Origin: Ariolimax columbianus
Lineage: Eukaryota; Mollusca; Gastropoda; Stylommatophora; Arionidae
Assembly: GCA_036924085.1 (NCBI GenBank)
Contig: JAVGWX010000002.1
Span: 158,059,674 to 158,123,673 of the forward strand
Length of the DNA: 64,000 nt
Reading direction: 5' to 3'
Each line of letters starts with the position of its first letter. Within the stretch, counting starts at the first letter, position 1. The notes under the pieces are model-generated. The model was not told the origin of the DNA. It ran no database searches and saw only the letters and a list, made by a program, of their open reading frames with translations. Both the position numbers and the translations under genes were made by a program. Shown piece after piece: positions 2,662 through 62,165 of the stretch.

Positions 2662-3277
2662 CTGCCCAGCCTTGCTCTGCTCATCCTCGCTCTGCCCATC
2701 CTCGCTCTGCCCATCCTCGCTCTGCCCATCCTCGCTCTGCCCATCCTTGCTCTGCTTTGCCCATCATTGCTCTGACCATCCTCGCTCTGCCCATCCTTGC
2801 TCTGCTTTGCCCATCATTGCTCTGACCATCCTTGCTCTGCCCATCCTCGCTCTGCTCATCCTCGCTCTGCCCATCCTCGCTCTGACCATCCTCGCTCTGA
2901 CCATCCTCGCTCTGCTCATCCTCGCTCTGCTCATCCTCGCTCTGACCATCCTCGCTCTGCCCATCCTTGCTCTGCTTTGCCCATCATTGCTCTGACCATC
3001 CTCGCTCTGCCCATCCTCGCTCTGCCCATCCTTGCTCTGCCCATCCTTGCTCTGTCCATCCTCGCTCTGCCCATCCTTGCTCTGCTTTGCCCATCACTGC
3101 TCTGACCATCCTCGCTCTGCCAATCCTCGCTCTGCCCATCCTTGCTCTGCTTTGCCCATCATTGCTCTGACCATCCTCGCTCTGCTCTTCCTCGCTCTGC
3201 TCTTCCTCGCTCTGCCCATCCTCGCTCTGCTCATCCTCGCTCTGCCCATCCTTGATCTGCCCATCCTTGCTAAACGT
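2662..3277 (+). repeat. 15-bp minisatellite inside RT (encodes ILALP)
   Basis: About 40 copies of a 15-bp unit (CTCGCTCTGCCCATC and variants such as GACCATC and CTTGCTCTGCTTTG). In the frame of the surrounding RT the unit reads ILALP or LILAL. At this place related RTs carry an ILALRLL-like helix, and the RT text resumes after the array with KRYRGYDRPLYA. The array therefore looks like in-place amplification of RT codons. Both strands show 60-140-codon open frames only because 15 is a multiple of 3. Confidence 0.9.
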
Positions 3278-3542
3278 TACCGCGGCTACGATCGGCCATT
3301 GTATGCGTCAGACGTGGACAAAAGTCTCTTTCGACTCAGTTGAGATGGCGGCTCTATAGAAAGCCCTTCAGGGATAGTCACCCCGCCCCCTTTATAAATC
3401 TGATCAAAGTGCTACACAATGACACCGGTATCAGAATTGGACTGGGTGGTTCTCTCTCTATCTCTCTCTTTCGCTCTCTCTCTCTCTCTAAATCTGATAT
3501 AAGTGCTACACAATGACACCGGTATCAGAATTAGACTGGGTG

Positions 3543-3592
<50 letters not shown>

Positions 3593-3770
3593 GGACAAAT
3601 TCCCCATGACTATGGGTGTCAGACATGGCTGTGTTCTTGCCTCCGACCTATTCTGCCGGACCGTGGACTGGCCCCTACTCCGTCTCAGCGTATACCAAGA
3701 GAGTATCTCTATGGACCAGACAAAGATCATCGATGTCGCATGCGCAGACGACATATCCCAGTAGTGCTCT
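3278..3770 (+). pseudogene. LINE relic 1: RT palm with CADD
   Basis: Directly after the array comes KRYRGYDRPLYASDVDKS, equivalent to the RT motif A region (family: ...RPLYVAYVDIKSAFDS), with the frame lost within it. Then LIKVLHNDTGIRI (family: LI..LH..T..RV), and after a CT microsatellite GVRHGCVLASDLFCRTVDW (motif B; normal Gln of GVRQGC replaced by His) and DVACADDIS (motif C, with Cys in place of the usual Tyr or Phe before ADD). It is clearly decayed. Confidence 0.8.
3398..3592 (+). repeat. Two-copy duplication with CT microsatellite inside RT
   Basis: A segment beginning AAATCTGAT and including CTACACAATGACACCGG occurs twice (near 3395-3480 and 3488-3590), each copy ending in a (TC)n run. 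The second run is uninterrupted for about 45 bases. This is a tandem duplication within the RT relic. Confidence 0.85.
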
Positions 3771-4210
3771 CCAGAAATCCTAACAGCGGAACCTCCTTTC
3801 TGGGCTTGTCGATATCCTTTGCGAAAACCAAAGTTCAGAATCTCATTTCTGATAAATACTTCAGGGCATTGAAACCCAAGGTCACACGGCGGAAGGCATC
3901 ACATAGTTACCTCTCTGGACAGAATGATCCCATCTGATTGGCGCAGCGGTCACGACATGTCAAGGCAGATCAGTCTAGATGTATCTCTTATGCATTACCT
4001 TCGCCGTGTATGCACTAACGACTATATCTCCCTTACAACAAAGATCCCCATTTACCATTATAATGTTTCCAGTCCTCACGTACGACTCTGAAGCAGAGAC
4101 GTTACTTAGACATGATAGATCAAGACTAGAGACATGGAATCGCGCTGCAGTAGGCTGTAGATGTGACGGATCTATGCAACGGGCTTCATTGGGCCTAAGC
4201 GAACCTACTG
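3771..4210 (+). pseudogene. LINE relic 1: region after the RT palm
   Basis: LGLSISFAKTKVQNL matches the block after motif C in this LINE type (family: LGL.VSW.KTKVQ). FPVLTYDSEAETLLRHDR followed by RLETWN matches the later VLPVLTYGSEAWTL block. The two are separated by about 200 bases without clear homology, and the frame is lost after about 4180. Confidence 0.65.
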
Positions 4211-4725
4211 ACTTGGGTTGAACTGAATAAGACCACTGTAATCTGCAAAGTTTCTAGAGTGAAGCCTAGGTGGAACAGAATAGCTCGAGTGTACCATCCA
4301 GGTATGTTGTTAAAGTCGACTAAAGAGTGTCGTGGATAGAGCTAACAACATCATAATGCAAACCCACTTCCATCGAAGCCTCTCTGTTAGTGCTCCAATA
4401 CAAGATTGATGTCGACGGTCCGATCTAGTGGTGGTGACTCTATGCTTCACATCGAGCGATAAGGAGTGTCAGTCAACCATTCAAGTCTATCTTTAAAGTC
4501 TATTATAGAAGTTTATTTATGGGACTAGCAACATCTTCTTGTCAAACGAACGACAAGGAAAACCACCACTACAAGATCTGAGAAAAGTCCTTTCATCTAC
4601 GATTTATGTAAGAGGGCCAACTATAGTTGCGTCACCATGCTTTGTTGGGAGCGAATATGAATGAAGAAGACCATGCGCACAGAAGAGAGGTATACAAGTG
4701 GGACAACTTCGTCCTTCGCTGATGG
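4211..4725. other. No recognisable feature
   Basis: Ordinary composition with no open frame of note and no repeat seen. It could be the 3' end of LINE relic 1, but I cannot support that. Confidence 0.5.
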
Positions 4726-5890: not shown

Positions 5891-5968
5891 CAGCCTGTCA
5901 GCCTCTTCATTGCCCAAAATATTATAATGCAGCCTGTCAGCCTCTTCATTGCCCAAAATATTATAATG
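5891..5968 (-). repeat. 39-bp unit duplicated once within LINE B RNase H
   Basis: The sequence from 5891 to 5929 is repeated at 5930-5968 with no difference that I can see. It covers the HYNILGNEEADRL codons of LINE B. It is a two-copy tandem duplication, an early stage of what the larger arrays show. Confidence 0.9.
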
Positions 5969-6143
5969 CGATATAATCCAGTGTATCACAACTCTCTTGA
6001 ACTGGTGATACAGTTTATAGAGTATCACTCTTAGTTTCCTAAGGTGTGAAATTTCCTGCCCAACCCCAGTGCCACAGACAGCTCGTCTGTGAATAGTGCC
6101 ACATGTCTCTCTGCGCTTTCATTTGTCCTGAGAGTTTCTGCGG

Positions 6144-6405
6144 CAGTTTTCGATGTCTCTGCCTCTGCTCTCGTTACTCGACAGTTTTCAATGTCTCTGT
6201 CTTGCCCTGGTTACTCAACAGTTTTCAATGTCTCTGCCTTACCCTGGTTACTCAACAGTTTTCAATGTCTCTGCCTTGCTCTAGTAACTCAACAGTTTTC
6301 AATGTCTCTGCCTTGCTCTGGTAACTCGACAGGTTTTCGATGCCTTTGCCTCTGCTCTGGTAACTCGACAGTTTTCCAAGCACTACAGATAGATGTCTTT
6401 GATGT
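6144..6405 (-). repeat. 37-bp minisatellite inside LINE B RNase H
   Basis: About seven copies with spacing 38, 37, 37, 37, 37 and 39 (CAGTTTTC at 6144, 6182, 6219, 6256, 6293; variants at 6330 and 6369). On the minus strand one unit reads YQSKAETLKTV, equivalent to the RNase H helix that in LINE A reads LRAEAKALRAAV. The array sits between the YVDGS and NEEAD motifs, exactly where that helix belongs. 37 is not a multiple of 3, so the amplification did not preserve a protein. Confidence 0.85.
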
Positions 6406-6697
6406 ACTTTTCTTTAGGCTCTAAAAGACACCGTTATTCTCTGTTGCGGTTGATGCTGATCCATCTACATATGTCCATATGTTCTATATGTGTTTTAGAG
6501 TTATCCTTCTTCTTTCTGTGTCTGTGTGTCTGCTCTTTCTTCACAATGGCGGGAATGTTTTCTCTCAGCTCTGAGAAGCGCTGTTTTATCCACGCGGGAA
6601 GCATATATGCAGTTTGCATATGTCTTTTTTGTGATGTGTCATTGACAGGATATGTTGTCCACTTTTCTTTCACTGGTGCCACAAAGTTGCTCCGCTT

Positions 6698-6709
6698 GAG
6701 CGCCTTTTC
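6698..6709. repeat. Target-site duplication, left copy (12 bp)
   Basis: GAGCGCCTTTTC, identical to 9538-9549. Removing 6710-9549 (LINE A plus one copy) restores a continuous LINE B reading (minus strand INDIGKGA then LKRSNF), matching LINE A's own LNNLGNG then KLKRRNF at the same place. Confidence 0.9.
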
Positions 6710-6712
6710 AAA

Positions 6713-7084
6713 AACTATAAGCCCTATTGGAACGATGAGTTACAGAAAGCGGAAGATGCAGTAACAAATGCTAGGAACATGGCAGAGCGAGAACAATCTA
6801 TGGAGGCAAACATCGCCCTCAAAGCCGCCACGGCGAAATACAAATACACTCTCAAGCAAACAGCAAGAGAAAGCTGGAAAAAAAAAACGGAAAGCCTAAA
6901 AATGGACAAAGACGGGAAAAAGCTATGGAAGCTAGTCAGAACCATGAACGACGAAACCCCGTCAAATAAACAAATTACCATCAAGCAGGGCGAAAACTTG
7001 CTCACAAGTAAGAAAGCCGCAAACGCTTTTGTCGATCACTATGCCAGAGCAAACCACATCGAGGTCCCTGCATTTAGACATTAG
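6713..7084 (+). pseudogene. LINE A: endonuclease-RT linker (partial)
   Basis: The frame is open from the element's first bases: YWNDELQKAEDAVTNAR, then a lysine-rich charged stretch (ESWKKKTESL), LWKLVRTMNDE and ANAFVDHYA. This is the usual linker upstream of RT in RNase H-type LINEs (family form: ...KLWKLIRSL...AN.F..HY). The Met at 6779 is not a real start, because homologous residues precede it. The frame is lost near 7068-7080 by a single-base shift and continues in the 7029 frame (LDISEELNEHD). Confidence 0.8.
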
Positions 7085-8294
7085 CGAAGAGCTAAATGAG
7101 CACGACAACATCAATACGGCACCTAAAGAGCACATGATGGCCAAATTAACAATGAGCGAAATGGAAGAGGCTATGAGAACATTAAAGAAAAGGAAATCTC
7201 CCGGAAAAGACGGGATAACAAACGAAATGCTGATGGGGCTGGGCCAAACAGCGAAGAGGAAACTGCTATCGGTCCTGAACCAAAGCTGGAACAGGGGAAT
7301 TGTACCCCATGCATGGAAAGACGCAATACTGGTACCAGTACCAAAAACAGGAAAGGACAAAACAGATCCAAATGGAGACAGGCCCATCAGCCTACTGAGC
7401 TGTGTCGGCAAGCTGATGGAACGTATGATAAACACCAGACTGATGTGGCATCTGGAAGAAAAACGAATACTAATTCCACAGCAAGCCGGCTTTAGACAGC
7501 ACAGATCCACTGAGGACCAGGTCATCCTCATTGCCCAGGAGATAGAAGATGCCTACCAGGCACAGAAACACACAGTAGCTGTTTGGGTGGACCTGGAAAA
7601 GGCATTTGACAAAGTCTGGAAAGACGGACTTAGTGCCAAGCTAAGAAGAAGTGACGTTTGTGGGAAAATGTACAAGTGGATCAACCACTACCTCAAACAA
7701 AGAACGGCCAGAGTCCAAGTACAAGGGCAGATGAGCAAAAAGGTGACACTCGAGCAGGGAGTACCCCAAGGGGGAGTACTGTCACCCACACTCTTCCTGG
7801 TATATATAAACGACATTACAGAGAATATACCAAGGAGAGTCCATAGCTCAATGTTTGCAGACGATCTGGCTATGTGGACCTCTGAAAAGAATCTCACCAT
7901 AGCAAGAAATCGGATGCAGACGGCCCTAACATCGCTGGAACAGTGGGCGAACTCATGGCTGTTCAAAATAAACGAGGAGAAAACCACATGCACAATATTC
8001 TCGCTTTCATTGAAACCCCAAAATACCAAATTAAGTCTAAATGGCAAATTCCTGCAGCCAAACGACAACCCAACCTATCTGGGAGTCAAATTTGATCGGC
8101 GCATGACATGGAAAAGTCAGATTGAGAGAAACCGAATGAGAGCCAGAGAAAGAATGGCAATCATGAGGAAACTTGCTGGCATAAGCTGGGGAGCAGACGA
8201 AGGCATACTAAAGAAACTACACTGGAAGAGTGAGACCAGTTCTCGAGTATGGCATTGCGGCATGGACAACAGCAGCAAAGGCGAACTTCGATAA
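7029..8294 (+). CDS. LINE A reverse transcriptase (partial, frame lost at both ends)
   Basis: RNA-directed DNA polymerase domain of a non-LTR retrotransposon, which copies the element's own RNA at a nicked chromosomal site. Visible motifs in order: KSPGKDGITNEML near residue 57; PISLLSCVGKLMERMIN; AGFRQHRSTEDQV; motif A VDLEKAFDKVW (catalytic Asp codon at 7590-7592, residue 188); GVPQGGVLSPTLFLVYIND (motif B); motif C FADD at 7854-7865 (residues 276-279); EEKTTCTIFS and TYLGVKFDRRMTW. All catalytic aspartates are present. True homology enters at about 7068 from the upstream frame and leaves at about 8230 into the next frame, so the Met and the last 20 residues are not native. The ORF survives by chance in a dead copy. 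Confidence 0.75.
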   Translation: MSITMPEQTTSRSLHLDISEELNEHDNINTAPKEHMMAKLTMSEMEEAMRTLKKRKSPGKDGITNEMLMGLGQTAKRKLLSVLNQSWNRGIVPHAWKDAILVPVPKTGKDKTDPNGDRPISLLSCVGKLMERMINTRLMWHLEEKRILIPQQAGFRQHRSTEDQVILIAQEIEDAYQAQKHTVAVWVDLEKAFDKVWKDGLSAKLRRSDVCGKMYKWINHYLKQRTARVQVQGQMSKKVTLEQGVPQGGVLSPTLFLVYINDITENIPRRVHSSMFADDLAMWTSEKNLTIARNRMQTALTSLEQWANSWLFKINEEKTTCTIFSLSLKPQNTKLSLNGKFLQPNDNPTYLGVKFDRRMTWKSQIERNRMRARERMAIMRKLAGISWGADEGILKKLHWKSETSSRVWHCGMDNSSKGELR

Positions 8295-8925
8295 AGTTAG
8301 CAAACGTCAAAACCAAGCCATGAGAATTATAACAGGAGGCATGAAGTCAACGCCAATTGTAGAACTTGAAAAGATTACAAAACTGCAATCCATGACCGAT
8401 AGAAGAGACTGCAGAGCCCAGCTGCAGTCAGAGAAACTCCGAAGACTGACTGACCATCCAATGCACCAGAGACTAAACAATTTGGGAAATGGGAAACTAA
8501 AGCGGAGAAACTTTGCAGAAATAGCCAAAGCAAAGATGCACGAAGATCCCATAAACGCACTAACAACACCAAAACCCATCACTACTGTACGAAAACCTAC
8601 CTGGAGGCAGGATATATTTCAAAAGGTGGTAGAAAATATACTAGGTATTGAAAACAAAAACTGCCAGACTGAAAAAGAAAGGAGAGATACTACCCTAAGC
8701 TTCATATCGAAAAGCTACCCAAGCATGGACTGGACCCATGCATACACCGACGGCTCTGTAACAAACACTACACAGAACGGAGGGGCAGGAGCATTCCTGA
8801 ACCTACCAAATGGCAGACAAATAACACTGTCATTCGCTACAGGTAAGTACACAAGCAATTTAAGAGCGGAGGCAAAGGCACTGAGGGCGGCAGTGGAAGA
8901 AATGGTGACACACAATGAAAATTAA
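8230..8925 (+). pseudogene. LINE A: RT thumb and RNase H start
   Basis: Continues the RT after a frameshift: RPVLEYGIAAWTTAAKANFD, MRIITGGMKSTPIVELE, DHPMHQRLNNLGNGKLKRRN, then the RNase H domain beginning at YTDGSVTN (first catalytic Asp codon 8749-8751) and LRAEAKALRAAVEEM (catalytic Glu in the AEA helix). A stop at 8923-8925 interrupts it; the same frame then continues with VLLTDALAVVTAL (third RNase H Asp, near 8947) up to about 9060. Confidence 0.85.
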
Positions 8926-9062
8926 AGCCATATAGTCCTGCTTACAGATGCTCTCGCCGTAGTCACAGCGCTAAAAAGCCAGAAAAACACTGAGCTTAAT
9001 GACTTAAGAGCAGCACTCTGCAAACTGGGCCAGCAGTCCGCACCAAAAAGGGTAGTGGTACA

Positions 9063-9290
9063 GTGGGTCCGTCACACTGCAACATCCAAGGCAACGAGGA
9101 GGCAGACAGACTGGCAAAAGAAGGTGCAAGACTACCACAAACAGATACTAGTATGACGTACGAAGGTTCAAAACGGCTTATCAAAGCCAGATACATGACC
9201 AAATGGGAAACCGAACATACTGGTTACACCAAAAACGATGAAGAGAGCAGGTCGTTGTCTTCAGACTTCGCACTGGCCACAATAGACTGA
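9063..9290 (+). pseudogene. LINE A: RNase H C-terminal part
   Basis: After a frameshift near 9063 the text reads GPSHCNIQGNEEADRLAKEG, the last RNase H motif (family form: ..GH.G..GNE.AD.LA), then MTYEGSKRLIKARYMTKWE. The first residue is not a start. The frame is lost near 9255, where the homologous reading shifts to the 9258 frame. Confidence 0.85.
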
Positions 9291-9514
9291 GGTACCACCT
9301 ATTCAACAAATTGAAGATAGGTGGCACCGACGAATGCCCGTGCGGTACTGGTAAAATGACCGCTGAACATCTGCTGCAGAACTGCCCGACATACGAGGAT
9401 CAGAGAGAGCAGATGTGGCCATCACCAGTGGAACTGCAAGACAAGCTCTATGGCAGTGGCGACAGCCTCAGGATGACCGCCGCTTTTTTCGAAAAAATAA
9501 TGGTTACTGTCTGA
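9258..9514 (+). pseudogene. LINE A: Cys/His C-terminal domain
   Basis: SFRLRTGHNRLRYHLFNKLK, then ECPCGTGKMTAEHLLQNCP (a C-x-C...H-x4-C arrangement common at the C-terminus of RNase H-type LINEs; presumed nucleic-acid binding), then TAAFFEKIMVTV and a stop at 9512-9514. The 3' untranslated part is very short and ends with GTACGATGAAGAAGAAG. A 14-bp perfect palindrome of T6CGA6 lies at 9484-9497 within the last codons. Confidence 0.8.
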
Positions 9515-9609: not shown

Positions 9610-9805
9610 ACTGTTAGGTCCTGCGGTCCCGTCTGTCCTCCATTAGTTGGGTCCTACTGTCCCGTCTGTTCTCCATTAGTTGGGTCCTGCTGTCCCGTCT
9701 GTTCTCGATTAGTTGGGTCCTGCTGTCCCGTCTGTTCTCCATTAGTTCGGTCCTGCTGTCCCGTCTGTCCTCCATTGGTTGGGTCCTGCTGTCCCGTCTG
9801 TCCTC
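9610..9805 (-). repeat. 33-bp minisatellite in LINE B
   Basis: Five to six copies of a 33-bp unit containing TTGGGTCCTGCTGTCCCGTC. On the minus strand it reads TGQQDPTNGEQ. It lies between the RT end and the RNase H leader, where LINE A has LQSMTDRRDCRAQ; the resemblance of the unit to that block is weak. Confidence 0.85.
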
Positions 9806-10264
9806 TACTGGTTGCAGGTCCAGGTCCCCAATGGGCTAGGTTCTTACACCATGTTATAATTCTCACTGCTTGAACTCTGGTTTTGAACTCTGGTTTTGAA
9901 TTTATTTTGACCAAGTTTGATTTGGTTGCAGTTGTCCATACTGCAATGATATGTTATAGGACTGCTCTCACACATCCAGTATACACCTTCTTCATCTGCT
10001 GCCCAAGTTATTCCAGCCAGTCTATCATGTTTTCCATTTTTTCTTTGAACGCATCCTGTTTCTCTTTGTTTCCACGTCAGCCTCCGGTCAACGGAAAAAC
10101 GTTAGAACATATTTGGGTTTTCATCAAGGAGCAGATAATATTTGTCCTTAGTCTTAGTTTAGAACTCTGGGGCTTATTTGAGTTAGAAAAGATTACATAT
10201 TTGATTGTTTTCTTCATTCATCGTTATTAGCCATGCCTTGGCCAACTTCTCCAGCGATGTTAGA

Positions 10265-12399: not shown

Positions 12400-15300
12400 T
12401 TGAAGACCCATATCTAATACCACATTAAAGATCCATGTGTTAGTCCGCACTAAAGATCCATGTCTAAGACCACACTACAGATTCATGTGTTAGTCCACAC
12501 TAAAGATTCATGTCTGAGACCACACTAAAGATACATGTCTAAGACAACACTAAAGATTCATGTGTTAGTCCGCACTAAAGATCCATGCCTGAGACCACAC
12601 TAAAGATCCATGTCTAACACCACACTAAAGATTCATGTGTTAGTCCGCACTAAAGATCCATATCTGAGACCACACTAAAGATTCATGTGTTAGTCCGCAC
12701 TAAAAATCCATGTGTAACACCACACTAAAGATTCATGTGTTAGTTCGCACTAAAGATCCATATCTGAGACCACACTAAAGATCCACGTGTTAATCTGCAC
12801 TAAAGATCTATGTGTTAGTCCGCACTAAAGATTCATGTGTTAGTCTGCACTAAAGATCCATGTGTTAGTCTGCACTAAAGATCCATGTGTTAGTCCGCAC
12901 TGAATATCCATGTCTGAGACCACACTAAAGATCCATGTGTTAGTCTGCACTAAAGATCCTTGTGTTAGTCTGCACTAAAGAACCATGTCTAAAACCACAC
13001 TAAAGATCCATGTCTAAGACCACACTAAAGATCCATGTCTAAGACCACACAAAAGATCCATGTGTTAGTCTGCACTAAAGATCCATGTCTAAGACCACAC
13101 TAAAGATTCATGTGTTAGTTTGCACTAAAGATCCATGTGTTAGTCTGCACTAAAGATACATGTCTAAGACCAAACTAAAGATCCATGTCTGAGACCACAC
13201 TGAAGATCCATGTCTGAGACCACACTAAAGATCCATGTGTTAGTCTGCACTAAAGATCCATGTATTAGTCTGCACTAAAGATCCACGTCTAAGACCACAC
13301 TAAAGATCCATGTGTTAGTCTGCACTACAGATCCATGTCTAAGACCACACTAAAGATCCATGTCTGAGACCACACTAAAAATTCTTGTCTAAGACCACAC
13401 TGAAGATCCATGTGTTAGTTTGCACTAAAGACCCATGTCTAAGACCAGACAAAAAATCCATGTCTGAGACCACACTTAAGATCCATCTCTGAGACCACAC
13501 TAAAGATCCATGTTTTAGTCTGCAGTAAAGATCCATGTGTTAGTCGGAACTAAAGATCCATGTCTAAAACCACACTAAAGATCCATGTCTACGACCACAC
13601 TAAAGATCCATGTCTAAGACCACACTAAAGATCCATATCTAAGACCACACTAAAGATCTATGTCTAAGACCACACTAAAGATCCATGTCTAAGACCGCAC
13701 TAAAAATCCATGTCTAAGACCACACTAAAGATCCATGTCTAAGACCACACTAAAGATCCATGTCTAAAACCACACTAAAGATCCATGTGCTAGTCTGCTC
13801 TAAAGATCCATGTGTTAGTCCGCACTAAAGATTCATGTCTAAGACCACATTAAAGATCCATGTGTTAGTCTGCACTAAAGATCCATGTCTAACACCACAC
13901 TAAAGATCCATGTCTGAGACCACACTAAAGATCCATATGTTAGTCTGCACTAAAAATTTATTTGTTAGTCTGCACTAACGATTCATGTCTGAGACCACAC
14001 TAAAGATCCATGTGTTAGTCTGCACTAAAGATCCATGTCTAAGACCACACTAAAGATCCATGTATTAGTCTGCACTAAAGATCCATGTCTGGGACCACAT
14101 TAAAGATCCATGTCTGAGACCACATTAAAGATCCATGTCTGAGACCACACTAAAGATCCATGTCTAAGACCGCATTAAAGCACAATGTCTGAGACCATAC
14201 TAAAGATACATGTTTTAGTCCGGACTAAAGATCCATGTCTAAGACCACACTAAAGATCCATGTGTTAGTCTGCACCAAAGATTCATGTGTTAGTCCGCAC
14301 AAAAAATCCATGCCTAAGACCACATTAAAGACCCATGTGTCAGTCTGCACTAAAGATCAATGTCTAAGACCACACTAAAGATCCATGTGTTAGTCTGCAC
14401 TAAAGATTCATTTGTTAGTCTGCACTAAAGATCCATGTCTGAGACCACACTAAAGATCCATGTGTTAGTCTGCACTAAAGATCCATATCTGAGACCACAC
14501 TAAAGATCCATGTATTAGTCCGCACTAAAGATCCATGTGTTAGTCTGCACTAAAGATCCATGTCTGAGACCACACTAAAGATCCATGTGTTAGTCTGCAC
14601 TAAAGATCCATGTCTAAAACCACACTCAAGATCCATGTCTAAGACCACACTAAAAATCTATGTCTAAGACCACATCTAAAGATCCATGTCTAAGACCACA
14701 CTAAAGATCCATGTCTAAGACCAAACTAAAGATCCATGTGCTAGTCTGCACAAAAGACCCATGTGTTAGTCCGCACTTAATATCCATGTCTAAGAACACA
14801 TTCAAGATCCATGTGTTAGTCTGCACTAAAGATCCATGTCTAACACCACATTAAAGATCCATGTCTGAGACCACACTAAAGATTCATATGTTAGTCTGCA
14901 CTAAAAATGTATTTGTTAGTCTGCACTAACGATCCATGTCTGAGACCACATTAAAGATCCATGTCTAAGTCCACATTAAAGACCCATGTGTTAGTCTGCA
15001 CTAAAGATCCATGTGTTAGTCTGCACTAAAGATCCATGTCTAAGACCACACTAAAGATCCATGTATTAATCAGCACTAAAGATTCATTTGTTATTCTGCA
15101 CTAAAGATCCATGTTTGAGACCACACTAAAGATCCATGTCTAAGACCACACTAAAGATCCATGTGTTAGTCTGCACTAAAGATCTATGTCTAAGACCACA
15201 CTAAAGATCCATGTCTGAGACCACACTAAAGATCCATGTATTAGTCCGCACTAAAGATCCATGTCTAAGACCACACTAAAGATCTATGTGTTAGTCTGCA

Positions 15301-18300
15301 CTAAAGATCCATGTCTAAGACCACACTAAAGATCCATGTCTGAGACCACACTAAAGATCCATGTCTTAGCCCACATTAAAGATCCATGTCTGAGAACACA
15401 CTAAAGATCCATGTATTAGTCTGCACTAAAGATCCATGTTTGAGACCACACTAAAGATCCATGTCTGAGAAGACACTAAAGATCCATGTCTTAGCCCACA
15501 CTAAAGATCCATGTGTTAGTCCGTATTTAAGATCCATGTCTAAGACCGCATTTAAGATCCATGTCTGAGACCACACTAAAGATTCATGTCTGAGATCACA
15601 CTAAAGATCCATGTCTGAGACCACACTAAAGATCCATGTGTTAGTCCGTATTTAAGATCCATGTCTAAGACCGCATTTAAGATCCATGTCTGAGACCACA
15701 CTAAAGATTCATGTCTGAGACCACACTAAAGATCCATGTCTAAGACCACACTAAAGATCGTTGTCTAAGACCACACTAAAGATCCATATCTGAGACCACA
15801 CTAAAGATCCATGTCTAAGACCCCACTAAAGATCCATGTCTAAGACCACACTAACGATCCATGTCTGAGACCACACTAAAGATCCATGTCTGAGACCGCA
15901 CTAAAGATCCATGTATTAGTCCGCACTAAAGATCCATGTCTAAGACCACACTAAAGATCCATGTCTGAGACCACACTAAAGATCCATTTGTTAGTCTGCA
16001 CTAAAAATGTATTTGTTAGTCTGCACTAACGATCCATGTCTGAGATCACGCTAAAGATCCATGTGTTAGTCCGTACTAAAGATCCATGTATAAGACCGCA
16101 TTAAAGATCCATGTCTAAGACCACACTAAAGATCCATGTCTGAGACCACACTAAAGATCCATGTCTAAAACCACACTAAAGATCTATATGTTTGTCTGCA
16201 CTAAAAATGTATTTGTTAGTCTGCACTAACGATCCATATTTTAGACCACACTAAAGATCCATGTGTTAGTCTGCACTAAAGATCCATGTCTGAGACCACA
16301 CTAAAGATCCATGTATTAGTCTGAACTAAAGATCTATGTCTAAGACCACACTAAAGATCCATGTGTTAGTCTGCACTAAAGATCCATGTCTGAGACCACA
16401 CTAAAGATCCATGTGTTAGTCTGCACTAAAGATCCATGTCTAAGACCACACTAAAGATCGATGTCTGAGACCACTTTAAAGATCCATGTCTGAGACCACA
16501 TTAAAGATCCATATCTGAGACCACACTAAAGATCCATGTGTTAGCCCGTACTAACGATTCATGTCTGAGACCACACTAAAGATCCATGTGTTAGTCCGGA
16601 CTAAAGATCCATGTCTAAGACCACACTAAAGATCCATGTGTTAGTCTGCACTAAAGATCCATATGTTAGTCCGCACTAAAGATCCATGTCTGAGACCACA
16701 ATAAAGATCCATGTGCTAGACTACACTAAAGATTCATGTGTTAGTCCGCACTAAAGATCCATGTCTAAGACCACACTAAAGATCCATGTCTAAGACCACA
16801 CTAAGGATCCATATATAAGTCTGCACTAAAAATGTATTTGTTAGTCTGCACTAACGATCCATGTCTGAGACCACACTAAAGATCCATGTCTGAGACCACA
16901 CTAAAGATCCATGTGTTAGCCCGTACTAACGATTCATGTCTTAGACCACACTAAAGATCCATGTGTTAGTCCGGACTAAAGATCCATGTCTAAGACCACA
17001 CCAAAGATCCATGTGTTAGTCTGCACTAAAGATCCATGTGTTAGTCCGTAGTAAAGATCCATGTCTAAGACCGCATTTAAGATCCATGTCTGAGACCACA
17101 CTAAAGATCCATTTGTTAGTCCGTACTACAGATCCATTTCTAAGACCGCATTAAAGATCCATGTCTAAGACCACACTAAAGATCCATGTCTGAGACCACA
17201 CTAAAGATACATGTCTATGACTACACTAAAGATCTATGTCTGAGACCACACTAAAGATCCATGTCTAAAACCACACTAAAGATCCATGTCTAAGACCACA
17301 CTAACGAACCGCGTCTTAGACCACACCAAAGATCCATGTCTGAGACCACACCAAAGATCCATGTGTTAGTCTGCACTAAAGATCCATGTCTGAGACCACA
17401 CTAAAGATCCATGTATTAGTCCACACTAAAGATCCATGTCTAAGACCACACTAAAGATCCATGTATGAGACCACACTAAAGATCCATTTGTTAGTCTGCA
17501 CTAAAAATGTATTTGTTAGTCTGCACTAACGATCCATGTTTTAGACCACACTAAAGATCCATGTGTTAGTCTGCACTAAAGATCCATGTCTAAGACCACA
17601 CTAAAGATCCATGTCTGAGACCACATTAAAGATCCATGTCTGAGACCACACTAAAGATCCATGTCTAAGACCACACTAAAGATCCATGTCTGAGACCACA
17701 CTAAAGATCCATGTCTAAGACCACACTAAAGATCCATGTCTAAGACCACACTAACGATCCATTTCTGAGACCACACCAAAGATCCATGTCTGAGACCACA
17801 CCAAAGATCCATGTCTAAGACCACACTAAAGATCCATGTCTGAGACCACACCAAAGATCCATGTCTGAGACCACACCAAAGATCCATGTCTGAGACCACA
17901 GTAAAAATCCTTTTATTAGTCTGCACTAAAATTTCATGTCTAAGACCACACTAAAGATCCATGTCTAAGACCACAATAAAGATCCATGTCTAAGACCACA
18001 CTAAAGATCCATTGGTTTGTCTGCACTAAAAATGTATTTGTTAGTCTGCACTAACGATCCATGTTTTAGACCACACTAAAGATCCATGTATTAGTCTGCA
18101 CTAAAGATCCATGTCTGAGACCACACTAAAGATCCATGTATTAGTCTGAACTAAAGATCCATGTCTAAGACCACACTAAAGATCCATGTGTTAGTCTCCA
18201 CTAAAGATCCATGTCTGAGACCACATTAAAGATCCATGTGTTAGTCTGCACTAAAGATCCATGTCTAAGACCCCACTAAAGATCCATGTCTGAGACCACA

Positions 18301-28453: not shown

Positions 28454-28985
28454 CGGTCGTTACACTGAACAGTTTTGGAGAACTGGCTTTTTGACGGTCG
28501 TTACACTGAACAGTTTGGGAGAACTGGCTTTTTGACGGTCGTTACACTGAACAGTTTGGGAGAACTGGCTTTTTGACTGTCGTTACACTGAACAGTTTGG
28601 GAGAACTGGCTTTTTGAGGAGTCGTTACACTGTACAGTTTGGGAGAACTGGCTTTTTGACGGTTGTTTCACTGAACAGTTTGGGAGAACTGGCTTTTTGA
28701 CGGTCGTTACACTGTACAGTTTGGGAGAACTGGCTTTTTGACGGTCGTTACACTAAACAGTTTGGGAGACTGGCTTTTTGACGGTCGTTACACTGAACAG
28801 TTTGGGAGAACTGGCTTTTTGACGGTCGTTACACAGAACAGTTTGGGAGAACTGGCTTTTTGACGGTCGTTACACAGAAAAGTTTGGGAGAACTGGCTTT
28901 TTGACGGTCGTTACACAGAACAGTTTGGGAGAACTGGCTTTTTGACGGTCGTTACACAGAAAAGTTTGGGAGAACTGGCTTAAAT
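28454..28985. repeat. 41-bp minisatellite
   Basis: About 13 copies of a 41-bp unit containing CGGTCGTTACACTGAACAG and TTTGGGAGAACTGGC. Copies are nearly identical, so amplification or homogenisation is recent. The flanks are unrecognised. Confidence 0.95.
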
Positions 28986-32599: not shown

Positions 32600-33445
32600 G
32601 AAATAGGTCTGTTAGCTTGTGTAGTAGAAAGGGGTAGGTCTGTTAGCTTGTGTAGTAGTACAGGATAGGTCTGTTAGCTTGTGTAGCAGTACAGGATAGG
32701 TCTGTTAGCTTGTGTAGTAGTACGGGGTAGGTCAATTAGCTTGTGTATTAGTACAGGATAGGTCTGTTAGCTTGTGTAGTAGTACAGGATAGGTCTGTTA
32801 GCTTGTGTAGTAGTATAGGATAGGTCTGCTAGCTTGTGTAGTAGTACAGGATAGGTCTGTTAGCTTGTGTAGCAGTACATGATAGGTCTGTTAGCTTGTG
32901 TAGTAGTACAGGATAGGTCTGTTAGCTTGTGTAGTAGTACAGGATAGGTCTGCTAGCTTGTGTAGTAGTACAGGATAGGTCTGTTAACTTGTGTAGTAGT
33001 ACAGGATAGGTCTGTTAGCTTGTGTAGTAGTACAGGATAGGTCTGTTAGCTTGTGTGGTAGTACAGGATAGGTCTGTTAGCTTGTGTAGTAGTACAGGAT
33101 AGGTCTGTTAGTTGTGTAGTAGTACAGGGTAGGTCTGTTAGCTTGTGTAGTAGTACAGGATATGTCTGATAGCTTGTGTAATCGTACAGGGTAGGTCTGT
33201 TAGCTTGTGTAGTAGTACAGAGCAGGTCTGTTAGCTTGTGTAGTAGAAAGGGGTAGGTCTGTTAGCGTGTGTAGTAGTACAGGATAGGTCTGTTAGCTTG
33301 TGTAGTAGTACAGGGTAGGTCTGTTAGCTTGTGTAGTAGTACAGGGTAGGTCTGTTAGCTTGTGTAGCAGTACAGGATATGTCTGTTAGCTTGTGTAGCA
33401 GTACAGGGTAGGTCTGTGAGCTTGTGCAGCAGTACAGGGCCTCCT
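32600..33445 (-). repeat. 31-bp minisatellite derived from LINE D RT codons
   Basis: About 27 copies of a 31-bp unit with AGGTCTGTTAGCTTGTGTAG. On the minus strand the first copy reads GGPVLLHKLTDL and the last reads LLHKLTDLFRSIWDDG, so the flanking LINE text enters and leaves the array through the same codons. 31 is not a multiple of 3, so only the edge copies are in frame. This is the clearest case of in-place amplification in the window. Confidence 0.95.
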
Positions 33446-33769
33446 GCTTTGTAAGCCTGAGCAGAACTAGCCCGTGACCCCGGGGCTTTGTCACTGGACA
33501 TTACGCTGATTGCCTTCTCGACCTAATCTATACTGGGCGGGATAGCGATGCTGCCCTTGATAGCAGCTTGATTCATGCGTGTTATGGGTAGGTGGCTGAT
33601 GGTGGGCGTGCAGTTTAAAATAACACTGAAGTGCTCTGCCCAATGTCCCAGGATATGGACTCTGTGCCATCATCAGTAAGGACAGGAAACGAGTGATAGC
33701 TGTCATGACATCGTAATACCGCCTCTAGTCATTCGTGTCCGCGGATCGCTGAATGTAATCAGCTTCGCT

Positions 33770-33897
33770 GTTGAGCTAAGCACCGGCTATTGAGCTAAGC
33801 ACCGGCTGTTGAGCTAAGCACCGGCTGTTGAGCTAAGCACCGGCTGTTGAGCTAAGCATCGGCTGTTGAGCTAAGCACCGGCTGTTGAGCTAAGCAT
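33770..33897 (-). repeat. 19-bp minisatellite derived from LINE D linker codons
   Basis: Seven copies of AGCTAAGCACCGGCTGTTG (ATC variant). On the minus strand it reads DA-stop-LNSR; related LINE linkers have DAWLNSKAD here, and the flank continues SEADYIQRSAD. Confidence 0.85.
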
Positions 33898-39894: not shown

Positions 39895-41232
39895 CCAGGA
39901 CAGATCCACACTAGCACGACCAGGACAGTAGATCTACACCAGAACGACCAGGATAGATCTACACCAGCATGACCAGGACAATAGATCTACACCAGCACGA
40001 CCAGGACAGATCTACACCAGCATGACCAGGACAGATCCACACCAGCATGACCAAGACAGTAGATCTACACCAGCATGTCCAGGACAATAGATCTACACCA
40101 GGACAGTAGATCTACACCAGCATGACCAGGACAGATCTACACCAGCACGACCAGGACAGATCTACACCAGCATGACCAGGACAATAGATCTACACCAGCA
40201 TGACCAGGACAGATCTACACCAGCACGACCAGGACAGATCTACACCAGCATGACCAGGACAATAGATCTACACCAGCATGACCAGGACAGATCCACACCA
40301 GCATGACCAGGACAGATCTACACCAGCATGACCCGGACAGTAGATCTACACCAGCACGACCCGGACAATAGATCTACACCAGCACGACCAGGACAGATCT
40401 ACACCAGCATGCCCAGGACAGATCTACACCAGCACGACCAGGACAGATCTACACCAGCACGACCAGGACAGTAGATCTACACCAGCACGACCAGGACAGA
40501 TCAACACCAGCACGACCAGGACAATAGATCTACACCAGCACGACCAAGACCGATCCACACCAGCACGACCAGGACAGTAGATCTACATCAGCACGACCCG
40601 GACAGATCCACACCAGCACGACCAGGACAGTAGATCTACACCAGCACGACCAGGACAGATCTACACCAGCACGACCCGAACAATAGATCTACACCAGCAC
40701 GACCAGGACCGATCTACACCAGCATGACCAGGACAGTAGATCTACACCAGCACGACCCGGACAGTAGATCTACACCAGCACGACCTGGACAATAGATCTA
40801 CACCAGCCCGACCAGGACAGATCTACACCAGCACGACCCGGGCAATAGATCTACACCAGCATGGCCAGGACAATAGATCTACACCAGCACGACCCGGACA
40901 ATAGATCTACACCAGCACGACCAGGACAATGGATCTACACTAGCACGACCCGGACAATAGATCTACACCAGCACGACCCGAACAATAGATCTACGCCAGC
41001 ACGACCAGGACATCTCTACACCAGCACGACCAGGACAGATCTACACCAGCACAACCCGGACAATAGATCTACACCAGCACGACCCGGACAATATATCTAC
41101 ACCAGCACGACCCGGTCAATAGATCTACACCAGCACGACCAGGACAGATCTACACCAGTACGACCAGGACAGATCTACACCAGCACGTCCAGGACAGATC
41201 TACACCAGCACGACCAGGACAGTAGAGCTACA
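39895..41232 (-). repeat. 25/28-bp minisatellite derived from LINE C RNase H codons
   Basis: About 50 copies of AGATCTACACCAGCACGACC plus AGGAC (25 bp), or with an extra AGT or AAT (28 bp). On the minus strand the unit reads IYCPGRAGV, the RNase H motif that in LINE C copy 1 reads WIYCPANARV. The right edge runs into LINE C RNase H text (41233-41330) that aligns with 31690-31800 of copy 1. The 191-codon forward frame DLHQHDPDNRSTPARPG is repeat-derived. Confidence 0.9.
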
Positions 41233-41965
41233 CAAACTCCTGGTAGTTTGAGGCTTCTTCAGCTCCCATTCACTCATGCCTTATCAAGCCCTTCTGTATC
41301 TTCCAAAGTAAGGATTGATACGATTTTTGTCCCTGATAGACAGGTCTCAGATAACCACATCAGAGCTGCAGTCACTGGTTCCATCTCCATTCTTGTAGCG
41401 GTTGTATGTTGTTCTGTATGCACCGCTCTGCCCTAGAAGCGACATGACCTCTCACTGTAGTACCAAGGTCCTAAAATCGAACCAGTTATATGCATCCTCC
41501 AGGTCTAGAGCATTTGCGACAGTTTCCTGCTTGGACTGAAATCCCTCATATGCAAATGTTTCAGCATTACCACAGGCGATTGCCTGGAACTGCCAAGGGT
41601 GTCAGGTAGAATGTGTTTACATTCTAGATCGAACATAATTTTTCTGTTCACAATCTTCTCTGTCATCGGGCCAAAGACTTTCTGTAGAGTGATTATTCTA
41701 CAGCTTCTGAGGAGTGTGGAATCGTGTCCAGGTTTAGGGAGTGGCGCAGGTAGCTATGGAGCCTTTTCTCGAGCACTGAGACCTTCTCTATCAGATTTAT
41801 AATCTATGCCTCGCCCTCTTCCTTGATGTGACAATACGGTGCTCCATCAGGACCTAAGGCAGTGTTCTTGTTGGAGCGTATAATGGGTACTAGCTCTGTC
41901 TCAGTAATCAAGTCTACCTAGTTGTTATCTCTGATGGTAGTGTCTGGACATACTGACCTATTTTC
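41233..41965 (-). pseudogene. LINE C copy 2: RT fingers and RNase H remnant
   Basis: Read downward in changing frames: ITETELVPIIRSNKNTALGP then DGAPYCHIKEE (family: ...LKNKKAPGPDG...), KVFGPMTEKIVNRKIMFDLE (family: LGKVFEK.IN.RL...LE), ILPDTLG, and FQSKQETVANALDLEDAYN (motif A; family: ....VF.DLE.AYD). The frame then passes to METSDC-type RNase H text and on to the GSLKLPG block at the array edge. Stops and shifts are frequent. Confidence 0.7.
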
Positions 41966-41999
41966 AGATGTACATTTCACTCTCCTTTGTCTGTCTGTG

Positions 42000-42432
42000 C
42001 AACATAGCGGTTAAAGGATTCAGGGCCGTTCCCTTCATCTGTCGTCAACGCCGTGTCTGTGCAACATACCGGTTAAAGGATTCAAGGCCGTTCCCTTCAT
42101 CTGTCGTCAACGCCGTGTCTGTGCAACATACCGGTTAAAGGATTCAAGGCCGTTCCCTTCATCTGTCGTCAACGCCGTGTCTGTGTAACATACCGTTTAA
42201 AGGTTTCAAGGCCGTCCCCTTCATCTGTCGTCAACGCCATGTCTGTGCGACATACCGGTTAAAGGATTTAAGGCCGTTCCCTTCATCTGTCGTCAACGCC
42301 GTGTCTGTGTAACACACCGTTTAAACGTTTTAAGGCCGTTCCCTTCATTTGTCGTCAACGCCGTATCTGTGTAACATACCGTTTAAAGGATTCAAGGCCG
42401 TTCCCTTCATCTGTCGTCAACGCTGTGTCTGT
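42000..42432 (-). repeat. 62-bp minisatellite in LINE C linker
   Basis: Seven copies of a 62-bp unit including ACATACCGGTTAAAGGATTC and CCCTTCATCTGTCGTCAACG. On the minus strand it reads DEGNGLESFNRYVAQT, which continues without a break into the linker text upstream of RT, so the unit appears to be LINE-derived. Confidence 0.85.
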
Positions 42433-51985: not shown

Positions 51986-52315
51986 TTACAGGACATCAGG
52001 AAAGGTAACTCTACTGAAAATCGAATGAGTGGCTTATTTAACCAGCCATCTTGTGTTTGCCTCAGTCAACATTCTTGAGCCCTATTACTTACGCCACTCG
52101 CCTCTCAATATCTCCCTCAAGCGAACGGTCTTCCGCTGTTGTTGTTTTCAATTTTTGTTTTATGGTCAACATATTCCATTTTGTTCCGTCGATTACTTCT
52201 TCTTCTTTCTGGGATCCACGAGGGAAGTACGTTATTTGTTCTTTCATTCCCTTATCAGCCCAGTGCTATACGCCTTGACATTAATGCAACTACTGTAACC
52301 TTTGATGTAAGTCGG
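51986..52315. other. No recognisable feature
   Basis: Frames of 66-89 codons overlap in all three forward frames with no known motif. Confidence 0.5.
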
Positions 52316-52692
52316 GGATCAAGATGCTGCAGCGGTTAGCGACCCATAGCTGACTGATAGCGTCAGGGCCAGCGAACCATAGCTGCCAAGACCCATCTAC
52401 ACCTCAACGTGGTGATCCTGGATAACAGGCTGCAGCTGAAGCAGGGCAGACTGGCTAAGGAGAAGGGATCGAAGAGGGAATGCTAACCCGGTACTCAAAA
52501 ATTTTTTGCTCAAGTCGGATGTGTTGGACCGAAAGGTGCAAATATCGCAGCCAAGCTGTAAACTACGACACAACGCATTCCGTTCTCTGGACTACATTCT
52601 GCTACTTAAGCCCTTTCAGGGTTTGGTAGTGGGAGATTGAGAACGAACGAAGAAGAAGAAGAAGAAGAAGAAGAAGAAGAAGAAGAAGAAGC
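52316..52692 (+). mobile_element. SINE-like dispersed element, copy 2, with (GAA)n tail
   Basis: Second copy of the element at 1212-1566, and the better preserved one. It opens with GATGCTGCAGCGGTTAGCGA and ends GGAGATTGAGAACGAACGAA followed by (AAG)n to 52692. CTTAAGCCCTTTCAGGGTTT near the 3' end can form a short hairpin (AAGCCCT/AGGGTTT with one G-T pair, TTC loop). The ACGAAGAAG tail resembles the GTACGATGAAGAAGAAG end of LINE A, which would fit mobilisation by an A-type LINE; this is inference. Confidence 0.7.
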
Positions 52693-56005: not shown

Positions 56006-56009
56006 AGGC

Positions 56010-59180: not shown

Positions 59181-59189
59181 AAAACACGG

Positions 59190-59907: not shown

Positions 59908-60394
59908 ATCATAAATGAAAATGAGAATTGTCAGGTGTTGTGAATACTCGTCACAACTTTATGGCCCAGAAACATGGGCACTGAACAACAAGTTGGAACA
60001 AAGTATTGAAACCTTCTAAAAGTGGGTTTATAGAAGATCGGATTGCATTTCTTGGAAAGACAAGAAAACAAATGCGGATGTATTGAAAAAGTTAGGCGTG
60101 AAAAGAGAATTTATGACCAAAATCAGGTTAGACAGTTACGTTATTTTGGTCCTATAACAAGACATACCTCCTTGTTGAAGACCATACTGAGGAGGGAGGG
60201 GGGGGTAGTGTGGAAGGCAGTCGTTCAAGAGGCAAGACAATGCTTTAAGTGGTGGATAACAACAGGAGATGGACTGGAAAAAGTCTGTTAGACTGCACCT
60301 TTATAGCAAGAGGTTGAGTACACTGGAGATCCATTGCAGCCGACCTTCGATGTGGAGATGGCACTTGAACTGAACCGAACTAACTGTTATAGCA

Positions 60395-60720
60395 TTTATT
60401 CTTTGATTCCAGTACATTTATTTCAGGATTCCAGTATTCAAATACATTAATTCATGGATAACAGTACACGTATTTCAGGATTCCAATACTCAATTACATT
60501 CATTCATGGATTCCAGTAATTCAGGACCATAATATTTCAGTATATCTAAACTATTTTTCCAGAACTAACATTCCGTTACCTAAGAACATATATTTTGGGA
60601 TTCCAGTTTTCCAGGACTCCACTATTTAAGTACACAATCCAGTATCATAAGACTCTAGTATTAAAGTATTCCAGTACATGTGTTCGATGATTCAAGCATT
60701 CTAGTATTCCAGTATAATAG
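60395..60720. repeat. Degenerate ATTCCAGTA repeat, right of LINE F
   Basis: GATTCCAGTA, TTTCAGGATTCCAGTA and TTCATGGATTCCAGTA recur irregularly. These share the core of the 58-bp array left of LINE F, so LINE F seems to have landed in older ATTCCAGTA sequence. Confidence 0.75.
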
Positions 60721-61195
60721 AAACATGTAATTGTTTTTGCATTCTTTCTGCTTCCTTTGGCTTTAGATCTACTGGCCTCACAATGTCCAATTGTATCAAT
60801 TTGAATGATGGCCTGTCACTTGTCTTCATGTGAATACTGCATCTGCGACTCCTATTTTCATCCAAATTGAACCTATTTCAGCTTCCACAACTTATCACTC
60901 GATAACCAATACTGTAACTCTATTTAGTGTTTCCCAAAATAACCTACTCCATTGATAATTAAGCCAGGAAACACCTTGCACTAGATGTCTATTATTGGTC
61001 TCCATATGAGATTATTGATTGCCAGAGACAATTATAACACATTTTGTGAGATGTATACGAACAAGCCGCATTCAGGATATAACACGAATATTAGGTCATC
61101 GGGGGGAAGTTGAGCGTGCAGCAGTATTAGGCCCTTTCAGGCATAACTGGTTATATGATGATAATACCTTTGATTGGTAAACACAAATATATACT
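60721..61195. other. No recognisable feature
   Basis: AT-rich unique sequence. It may hold the 3' untranslated end of LINE G near 61090-61195. Confidence 0.5.
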
Positions 61196-61199
61196 TAGC

Positions 61200-62165
61200 T
61201 TTTTTTGTTTTCTTTCTGCTTGCGGTGTTGTTGTTGTTTCCCATCTTCGTGTTGCAAGAGGTATAACTCCACTGGGATCAGTCTGCAGCTTCGTCGTCTA
61301 AGGATGTCAGACTCATGTTCAGGGCTTGTATATAATGCTTGTACACATCTTTGAACTTCAACTGTGGTCGGCTGACTGTTCTCTTGCCATCCGCCAACTG
61401 TCCATAGATGTCTTTGGAGATGCGACCATCTTCCATGCGACCATCTTCCATTCGACCATCTTTCATGCGACCATCTTCCGTTCGACCATCCACCGTGCGC
61501 CCATCTTCCATGCGACCATCTTCCATGCGACCATCTACCATGCGACGAAAATGACCAAGTCACCGTAGTCTTTACTGCCCCTGTGTACAGCGTACATCAT
61601 TGGGAGACTGATGTGAGAGTGCACCTCTGCTTTTGTCACTCTGCTCCGCCATGTTATTCCAAGAATGGATCGCGGGCGCCGTTTGCGGAAGGTGTTAAGC
61701 TTGTGCTCCTGTTTGACACAGGTTTCCCAAGTCTGACTACCTGATAGGATGTCACGTGTACACCATGGCCTTGATTTCAATTTGCAGCTTCTAGTTTTCA
61801 CAAAGAAGCGTTGTGAGGCGAATAGATGTACCAGCAGATTTGCCAATGCGGCTGTCTATTTCTTGGTCTAGAGAGAGCTTGTCGCTATTTAGGGATCACA
61901 GGTACGTGAATTGGTACACAGCTGCCAGTTCATAATTATCGACGCTGACAGTTGACGTGGCATCTACTTCCTGTCCCAGCACTGTGTTTTGGTGAGACTT
62001 ATTGTGAGACCAAAATCTGCGCTCGCTTGGGAGAGGTGATCTATCAAATTCTGAATCTGCTGCTGACTGTAGGCGACAATTGCAGCATCATCAGCGAAAC
62101 GTAAGTTCTTAATGGTGATCTACCTGATCTTCTGTTTGGCCTTGAGCCTTGCAAGGTTAAATAGC
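61200..62165 (-). mobile_element. LINE G relic (RT palm to ORF end)
   Basis: Minus strand, read from 62165 down: KNLRFADDAAIVAYSQQQ (FADD codons 62098-62087), DFGLTISLTKTQ, YELAAVYQFTYL, DQEIDSRIGKSAGTSIRLTT, SQTWETCVKQEHKLNTFRKR, RPRSILGITWRSRVTKAEV, a 15-bp array, GRISKDIYGQLADGKRTVSR, PQLKFKDVYKHYIQAL. This is the C-terminal half of an RNase H-less LINE RT. It is 5'-truncated before motif C, with frameshifts near 61550, 61850 and 61890. The catalytic ADD is intact but motif A is absent. Confidence 0.85.
61420..61544 (-). repeat. 15-bp minisatellite derived from LINE G codons (MEDGR)
   Basis: About eight copies of CATCTTCCATGCGAC. On the minus strand the unit reads MEDGR or VDGRT, and the last unit leads directly into GRISKDIYGQL. 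Related LINEs have a single H-x-M-DDGRIPKDLLYG block here, so this is local amplification of those codons. Confidence 0.9.

What the first reader, a model, noticed from the sequence alone, without database searches (positions are those of the whole stretch)
2662..61544. Minisatellites born in place from LINE coding sequence, repeatedly
At least six arrays lie inside a LINE relic (or, at 46840, stand alone) and have a unit that reads as the LINE motif expected there: 2662 (ILAL, RT), 6144 (RNase H helix), 32600 (LLHKLTDL, RT), 33770 (DAWLNS, linker), 39895 (IYCPGRAGV, RNase H), 46840 (DIICLQET, endonuclease), 61420 (MEDGR, ORF end). Weaker cases are 5395, 9610, 10265, 42000 and 48205. Five different LINE families are involved, on both strands, with unit lengths from 15 to 62 bp that mostly are not multiples of 3, so protein selection is not the cause. 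This points to a genome-wide process that turns dead LINE DNA into tandem arrays. In-place tandem duplication is known in general; so many independent conversions within 64 kb is what deserves attention.
Basis: partly seen in the sequence, partly recalled or inferred. Interest (0 to 1): 0.9.

Follow-up and report, generated by a model that had tools for sequence, protein, structure and literature searches.

The report
Minisatellites born inside decayed LINEs
In this animal genome, likely a snail's, short stretches of decayed jumping-gene (LINE) DNA have been copied head-to-tail where they lie, so repeat arrays sit inside elements whose other copies run through the same spot unbroken; the same local duplication likely acts on other old DNA too, and repeats derived from jumping genes are already known from the human genome.

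Summary
Three more cases turned up (3395, 5891, 63016). Other copies of the LINE in the same genome run through these sites without an array. At 32603, removing the array opens a 31-nt gap that the 31-bp unit fills (27 of 29 aligned bases identical), and its head-to-tail junction (up to 3 mismatches) has 23 genome hits, all inside this array: no travelling satellite inserted there. But LINE DNA shows no sign of being preferred: 11 of 55 window arrays are LINE-bracketed (19.3 expected by random placement), and 0 of 113 in 200 kb of random stretches (about 14 expected). Minisatellites fill 25% of that sample, about 1.4 million arrays by extrapolation. LINE relics likely just make readable what happens to old DNA generally. 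Only 2 of 8 sites had short direct repeats at unit spacing. TE-derived minisatellites are known; the density, and the shortage of two-copy stages, deserve attention.

The parts
2658..3271 (+). 15-bp minisatellite inside a LINE reverse-transcriptase relic (reads ILAL-P)
   Evidence: 8 own-genome copies (L041-L048) align through the site without an array; consensus TATCCTTGCTCTGCGCCTCCTCGCC; unit GCTCTGCCCATCCTC vs LINE GCTCTGCGCCTCCTC 13/15; 2/300 shuffles reach it; 148 of 150 listed genome matches run through the site
3395..3592 (+). 94-bp two-copy duplication plus TC microsatellite inside the same LINE relic
   Evidence: LINE consensus has one copy and only CTCTCTCT; window has two copies and a long TC run
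5891..5969 (-). exact two-copy 39-bp duplication of RNase H motif HYNILGNEEADRL
   Evidence: LINE family A copy at 9003-9287 has one copy; flanks colinear; 0 of 2000 shuffles at the site, 7/300 over the whole reference
6144..6376 (-). 37-bp minisatellite on the RNase H helix NLRAEAKALRAA of a family A relic
   Evidence: left flank aligns to family A up to about 8831 and right flank from about 8895; first and last copies keep the longer ancestral form AGAGCAGAGGCA; unit itself borderline: 191/2000, first copy 29/300
9613..9828 (-). 33-bp minisatellite (MEDRRDSRTQL) in a family A relic (SMTDRRDCRAQL)
   Evidence: flanks colinear with family A; 24 of 2000 shuffles at site, 147 of 300 over the whole reference; 150 of 150 listed young copies run through
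9870..9900 (-). 13-bp, 2.4-copy repeat in the same family A relic; weakest case
   Evidence: flanks colinear, unit not above shuffles (289/300)
32603..33438 (-). 31-bp minisatellite inside an RTE-like reverse transcriptase relic (PVLLHKLTDL)
   Evidence: removing it opens an exact 31-nt gap against 12 own-genome copies; 0/2000 shuffles; 148 of 150 listed matches run through, the other two are this relic's halves; junction unique to this array
33767..33896 (-). 19-bp minisatellite (DAWLNS, W codon is TAG) in the same relic
   Evidence: consensus of the own-genome copies GGATGCCTGGCTTAACAGC, no array in the 12 (one, L038, does not align at this spot), window copy CGATGCTTAGCTCAACAGC; 94/2000 and 14/300 shuffles
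39895..41233 (-). 28-bp minisatellite on RNase H motif IYCPGHAGV; LINE only on the upstream flank
   Evidence: left flank and first copy colinear with 5 own-genome copies L065-L069; unit 22/27 identical, 0/300 shuffles; 150 of 150 listed matches run through, one of them the window's own relic at 31618
41992..42432 (-). 62-bp minisatellite in a LINE linker (TALTTDEGNGLESFNRYVAQT)
   Evidence: 6 own-genome copies run through without an array, mostly reading GRLLKTDEEKGLSFFSRYVAQTDKGD; 43/53 identical, 0/300 shuffles; 149 of 150 matches run through, the other is this relic
61420..61546 (-). 15-bp minisatellite at the LINE C-terminus (MEDGR)
   Evidence: 8 own-genome copies have the segment once, e.g. 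L049 CGTCGCATGGAAGATGGTCGCATC; unit 15/15 identical to the consensus, 0/300; 149 of 150 matches run through, the other is this relic
63016..63750 (+). 49-bp minisatellite in a short dispersed repeat whose copies read like a LINE C-terminus (that reading is by eye, untested)
   Evidence: 29 of 39 non-window genome hits run flank-unit-flank without array; alignment of 6 copies; 33/44 identical, 6/300 shuffles
28454..28981 (+). 41-bp minisatellite at the end of a dispersed repeat of unknown class (one flank)
   Evidence: 35 of 39 non-window hits run from the left flank at least 20 bases into the unit, 74-82% identity; unit 25/28 identical, 0/300

Best explanation
Short segments (13-94 bp) of old LINE DNA have been tandemly duplicated on the spot and then expanded, likely by replication slippage or break repair followed by unequal exchange, and LINE relics are likely just where this can be read, because the original single-copy sequence survives in other copies. 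Shown: at the LINE sites listed, flanks and unit together make up one colinear LINE, and other copies of the LINE have no array there. Shown for one array: its unit junction was found nowhere else in the genome. Inferred: the duplication step. At the two 15-bp sites the LINE reference has a 5-7-bp direct repeat spaced one unit apart (CGCAT, or GTCGCAT in some copies, at 61420; TCCTTGC/TCCTCGC at 2659), which fits slippage between short direct repeats. At the other six sites examined (19, 31, 33, 37, 39, 62 bp) there is at most a 3-bp match, which would fit repair of a staggered break or template switching with little homology. Inferred: the process acts on all old DNA; LINE is not preferred.
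For: Exact 31-nt gap filled by the 31-bp unit; contiguous empty-site copies: 148 of 150, 148 of 150, 150 of 150, 149 of 150, 149 of 150 and 150 of 150 listed matches; DNA alignments to fetched copies; junction uniqueness 23/23 for 32603; ancestral-form first and last copies at 6144; arrays throughout the random sample, 123 in 200 kb, 25.1% of bases.
Against: The family A reference is a related copy, not the direct ancestor, so 6144 and 9613 unit matches are modest, and the direct-repeat tests at 9613, 6144 and 5891 are weak. Terminal copies are not generally more divergent than inner ones (96 arrays, 0.084 vs 0.079, P=0.29), so the founder-at-the-ends picture of 6144 is not general; at 32603 the LINE base kept by copies 1-3 is also in inner copies 19 and 25 and not in the last copy. 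Empty-site searches keep the best contiguous matches, so they show that array-free copies exist, not how often arrays occur. Array 57999 was uninformative. No LINE-bracketed array was found in the random sample (0 of 113), so generality beyond the window rests on array density, not on further proven births.
Confidence: 0.82

Rival explanations
1. A LINE-directed process (for example LINE endonuclease nicking or sequence-specific slippage in LINE ORFs) turns LINE DNA into arrays.
For: 11 of 55 window arrays lie inside LINE relics on the hand-extended map.
Against: Arrays are under-represented at LINE DNA: 0 of 113, about 14 expected, 11 of 55 vs 19.3; 28454 lies at a repeat not recognised as LINE ORF. 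The LINE library favours young copies, so part of the deficit may reflect age.
Confidence: 0.08
2. Pre-existing satellites were inserted into LINEs.
For: None found.
Against: Units match the LINE at the interrupted site, no LINE sequence is displaced at 32603, and its junction was found nowhere else. The uniqueness test was run for one array only.
Confidence: 0.03
3. The arrays arose once in a LINE lineage and were spread by retrotransposition.
For: None found.
Against: The copies aligned at these sites carry no array and the listed matches run through; the 31-bp junction is unique. Listed copies were selected for being contiguous.
Confidence: 0.04
4. The unit resemblance to LINE motifs is chance.
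For: Units at 9870 and 48212 are no better than shuffles; 9613 (147/300) and 6144 (29/300) are modest over the whole reference.
Against: 32603, 61420, 41992, 39895 and 28454: 0 of 300 shuffles over the whole reference; 0 of 81 other window units reach the score at the 32603 site.
Confidence: 0.03

Closest known systems
TE-derived minisatellites of the human genome (Ahmed and Liang 2012, PMC3389668; abstract, section 3.4 and passages seen)
   Same: Tandem repeats derived from TE sequence in place; most initiations not explained by flanking direct repeats or truncated end units (those explain 6%).
   Different: With a similar filter the random sample has 11 arrays in 200 kb (55 per Mb, Poisson 95% 27-98) against about 10 per Mb in human (their 31,472 over a recalled 3.1 Gb). 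0 of those 11 (and 1 of 3 in the window) have under 2.5 copies, while they say the majority of the unexplained human ones have only two units. My filter only approximates theirs.
Haber and Louis minisatellite birth by slippage between 5-10-bp flanking repeats (seen only as described in passages of PMC6947457 and in PMC3389668)
   Same: The two 15-bp arrays (2659, 61420) have 5-7-bp repeats at unit spacing in the LINE reference.
   Different: Six other sites examined have at most 3 bp.
Minisatellites within LTRs, B1 and Alu (Armour 1989, Kelly 1994 and others; not read, seen only as cited in PMC6947457 passages)
   Same: Array derived from a dispersed element.
   Different: Here LINE coding regions, with several separate cases within 64 kb.

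Membership tests
TE-derived minisatellite born in place | Unit homologous to the element at the interrupted position | tested here: met
   8 sites with element sequence on both flanks and a unit above shuffles at about P<0.05, or a direct alignment (2658, 3395, 5891, 32603, 33767, 41992, 61420, 63016); 6144 and 9613 weaker, 9870 not above shuffles, 39895 one flank only
TE-derived minisatellite born in place | Flanks colinear, array-free copies elsewhere | tested here: met
   at 39895 and 28454 one flank only
TE-derived minisatellite born in place | Array not present at unrelated loci | tested here: met
   Only for 32603: 23 of 23 junction hits local; not tested for the others
Haber-Louis birth | Short direct repeats flanking the future unit in the single-copy ancestor | tested here: inconclusive
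   2 of 8 sites (P=0.03 each, uncorrected), 6 of 8 not
Taylor-Breden slippage | Incomplete terminal repeat unit | tested here: inconclusive
   Remainder 0-3 bp in 20 of 107 arrays (15.4 expected), 4-10 bp in 32 (27.0 expected)
Dispersed satellite DNA | Same monomer in arrays at many loci | tested here: not met
   32603 only
LINE-directed conversion | Excess of arrays in LINE DNA | tested here: not met
   the LINE maps are incomplete

The most novel reading that the evidence does not exclude
This genome carries a hyperactive tandem-duplication process: of the order of a million or more independently born minisatellites fill a quarter of it, births need little flanking homology, and arrays run quickly from two copies to many, so two-copy stages are scarce. 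Dead LINEs, with many array-free sister copies, would make each birth's ancestral sequence and breakpoints directly readable, turning the open question of minisatellite initiation into a countable one.
Probability: 0.35. Interest if true: 0.72.

Novelty: new member of a known kind. Interest (0 to 1): 0.48.

Why it matters
How a minisatellite starts from single-copy DNA is still open; Ahmed and Liang could explain the initiation of only 6% of human TE-derived ones. A genome in which LINE copies are so many and arrays so dense gives, for each array in a LINE, the pre-duplication sequence and the ends of the duplicated segment. That would allow slippage, end-joining and template switching to be told apart by counting.

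Tried and rejected
LINE preference: not supported by placement tests. Inserted satellite: rejected for 32603. 48205 as LINE-born: rejected. 46840 as endonuclease-born: I saw no LINE flank; all 39 non-window hits lie in the right flank, 55 bases or more beyond the unit, and none crosses the array, so only the short motif remains. A general founder-at-the-ends signature: tested, not found. An automatic search for colinear LINE on both sides with a protein library found 4 of 52 window arrays and 0 of 116 random ones; the library covers few LINE clades. Array 57999: uninformative, 4 partial hits besides itself. A search with the 61420 C-terminus found no protein (4 candidates, none at E 0.001). 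Literature searches listed no paper whose title or abstract start describes minisatellite birth in LINEs of a mollusc; the lists were capped (20 of 39, 15 of 208, 2 of 2, 15 of 216, 10 of 10, 12 of 222) and the library is open-licence only, so this is not proof of absence. Rapana venosa and Concholepas papers (PMC10432487, PMC10797722; passages only) were looked at for context.
Full report
Setting. The window is C2:158059674-158123673 of a 2.294-Gb assembly in 401 contigs. Of the 120 listed protein matches (5,096 in all) of its best LINE reverse transcriptase, the ones with an organism name are gastropods (Batillaria, Pomacea, Nucella, Littorina, Elysia), so the host is likely a gastropod; this is an inference. 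TRF gives 110 rows that merge to 59 arrays covering 53.8% of the window, 55 of them with a period of 10 or more.

Background. In 20 random 10-kb stretches (L009-L028) 26.7% of bases are tandem repeat; 123 arrays have period 10 or more, covering 25.1% (bootstrap 18.6-32.2%), i.e. 6.15 per 10 kb (4.6-7.8), about 1.4 million by extrapolation (1.07-1.79 million). So the window is dense but not of a different kind. With a filter close to Ahmed and Liang's (period over 20, at least 95% match, GC at least 40%) there are 11 arrays in the 200 kb, none with under 2.5 copies, and 3 in the window, one of them with under 2.5 copies. With period 20 or more, 12 of 91 random-sample arrays have under 2.5 copies and 59 of 91 have five or more; with period 13-150, 20 of 110 have under 2.5.

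Sites with own-genome references. At 32603 and 33767 (one RTE-like relic, minus strand) 12 copies were aligned. Deleting the 31-bp array leaves exactly a 31-nt gap, consensus CCTGTGCTGCTACACAAGCTAACAGACCTCT in the LINE against unit CCTGTACTACTACACAAGCTAACAGACCTAT. Deleting the 19-bp array leaves 16 nt because three bases of the first copy stay in the flank. Of 150 listed genome matches (151 in all) 148 run through the 31-bp site without an array-sized insert, and the other two are this relic's own halves. A protein from Pleurodeles, P0001, also reads GGPILLHKLTDLFQ without interruption.

At 2658 the consensus of eight copies reads AILALRLLAEL once, and 148 of 150 listed matches (152 in all) run through. 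At 61420 eight copies have the segment once, mostly RRMEDGRIPKD (149 of 150 matches). At 41992 six copies have it once, mostly TDEEKGLSFFSRYVAQTDKGD (149 of 150). At 39895 five copies align, with VLTWIYCPAHAGVQGNERAD or close to it in the four translated; the window keeps this up to the first unit, and the LINE beyond the array is missing (150 of 150 matches, one of them the window's array-free relic at 31618). At 63016 a dispersed repeat runs flank-unit-flank in 29 of 39 non-window hits; its copies end in a frame that I read by eye as a LINE C-terminus. At 28454, 35 of 39 non-window hits run from the left flank into the unit; that repeat's class is unknown. These searches score only the best candidates, so they show that array-free copies exist, not their share.

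Family A sites were compared with the array-free copy in the window (6635-9511). The 39-bp duplication at 5891 repeats HYNILGNEEADRL exactly. The 6144 array sits on NLRAEAKALRAA, and its first and last copies keep the ancestral length while four inner copies share a shortened form. The 9613 array sits on TDRRDCRAQL; 150 of 150 listed genome copies, all 98-99% identical to the query and so likely young, run through that stretch.

Chance. Against a 90-bp LINE region at each site, 2000 dinucleotide shuffles reached the score 0, 94, 19, 24, 191 and 0 times for the 31, 19, 15, 33, 37 and 39-bp units. Against whole references, 300 plain shuffles reached it 0 (32603), 14 (33767), 2 (2659), 0 (61420), 0 (41992), 0 (39895), 6 (63016), 0 (28454), 147 (9613), 29 (6144, first copy), 7 (5891) and 289 (9870) times.

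Uniqueness. The head-to-tail junction of the 31-bp array, up to 3 mismatches, has 23 hits in the genome, all inside this array. This was done for one array only.

Is LINE special? With a library of about 150 LINE proteins, LINE makes up 16.0% of non-repeat bases in the random sample; 0 of 113 arrays are bracketed by LINE within 50 bp and 3 touch LINE on a side. Random placement gave 15.5 (95% 9-22) and 18.3, but for all 123 arrays; scaled to the 113 scored this is about 14 and 17. In the window 2 of 55 are bracketed with the same library (10.5 expected), and 11 of 55 with a hand-extended relic map (19.3 expected, P=0.011; 10 of 55 against 19.2 before 63016 was added). The library favours young copies and the hand map is mine, so the deficit may partly reflect that arrays need time; but there is no sign of an excess. 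By the library the window has 2 of 55 bracketed against 0 of 113 in the random sample, so the window may hold more old LINE relics than average.

Initiation. In the LINE reference a direct repeat at unit spacing exists at 2659 (TCCTTGC/TCCTCGC) and 61420 (CGCAT), P=0.03 each without correction; none at 32603, 33767, 9613, 6144 and 5891 (P 0.66 to 1.0) and 3 bp at 41992. For the family A sites the reference is a relative, not the ancestor. Array remainders do not point to one model. Units have more GC skew than random segments (0.355 vs 0.275, P=0.0005).

Known or new. TE-derived minisatellites are established: 7,276 or 23% of human ones, with the initiation of all but 6% unexplained by the two established models (PMC3389668, abstract and section 3.4). 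This case is a new, dense member of that kind. LINE clade names and motif readings are recalled or by eye except where a call is cited.

Noticed in passing
12403-26448: A 14-kb array of a 25-bp unit (AAGATCCATGTCTTAGACCACACTA), about 560 copies, the largest in the window.
   Followed up: no
37237-38557: GTTAGG-rich array mixed with GGTATGGATTG in a 48/96-bp higher-order period; looks like telomere-type repeat away from a contig end.
   Followed up: no
6635-9511: LINE family A: the 150 best genome matches are 98-99% identical over the searched 134 residues, with open frames up to 1304 aa, so likely a recently active family.
   Followed up: partly
1188-1519, 52293-52648, 49094-49222: A dispersed family found by self-comparison, not classified.
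   Followed up: no
3545-3592: TC microsatellite apparently grown from CTCTCTCT of the LINE consensus.
   Followed up: partly
L007, from base 13: A fetched LINE locus begins with an open frame of 160 residues reading NNSIFLCVSAI over and over.
   Followed up: no
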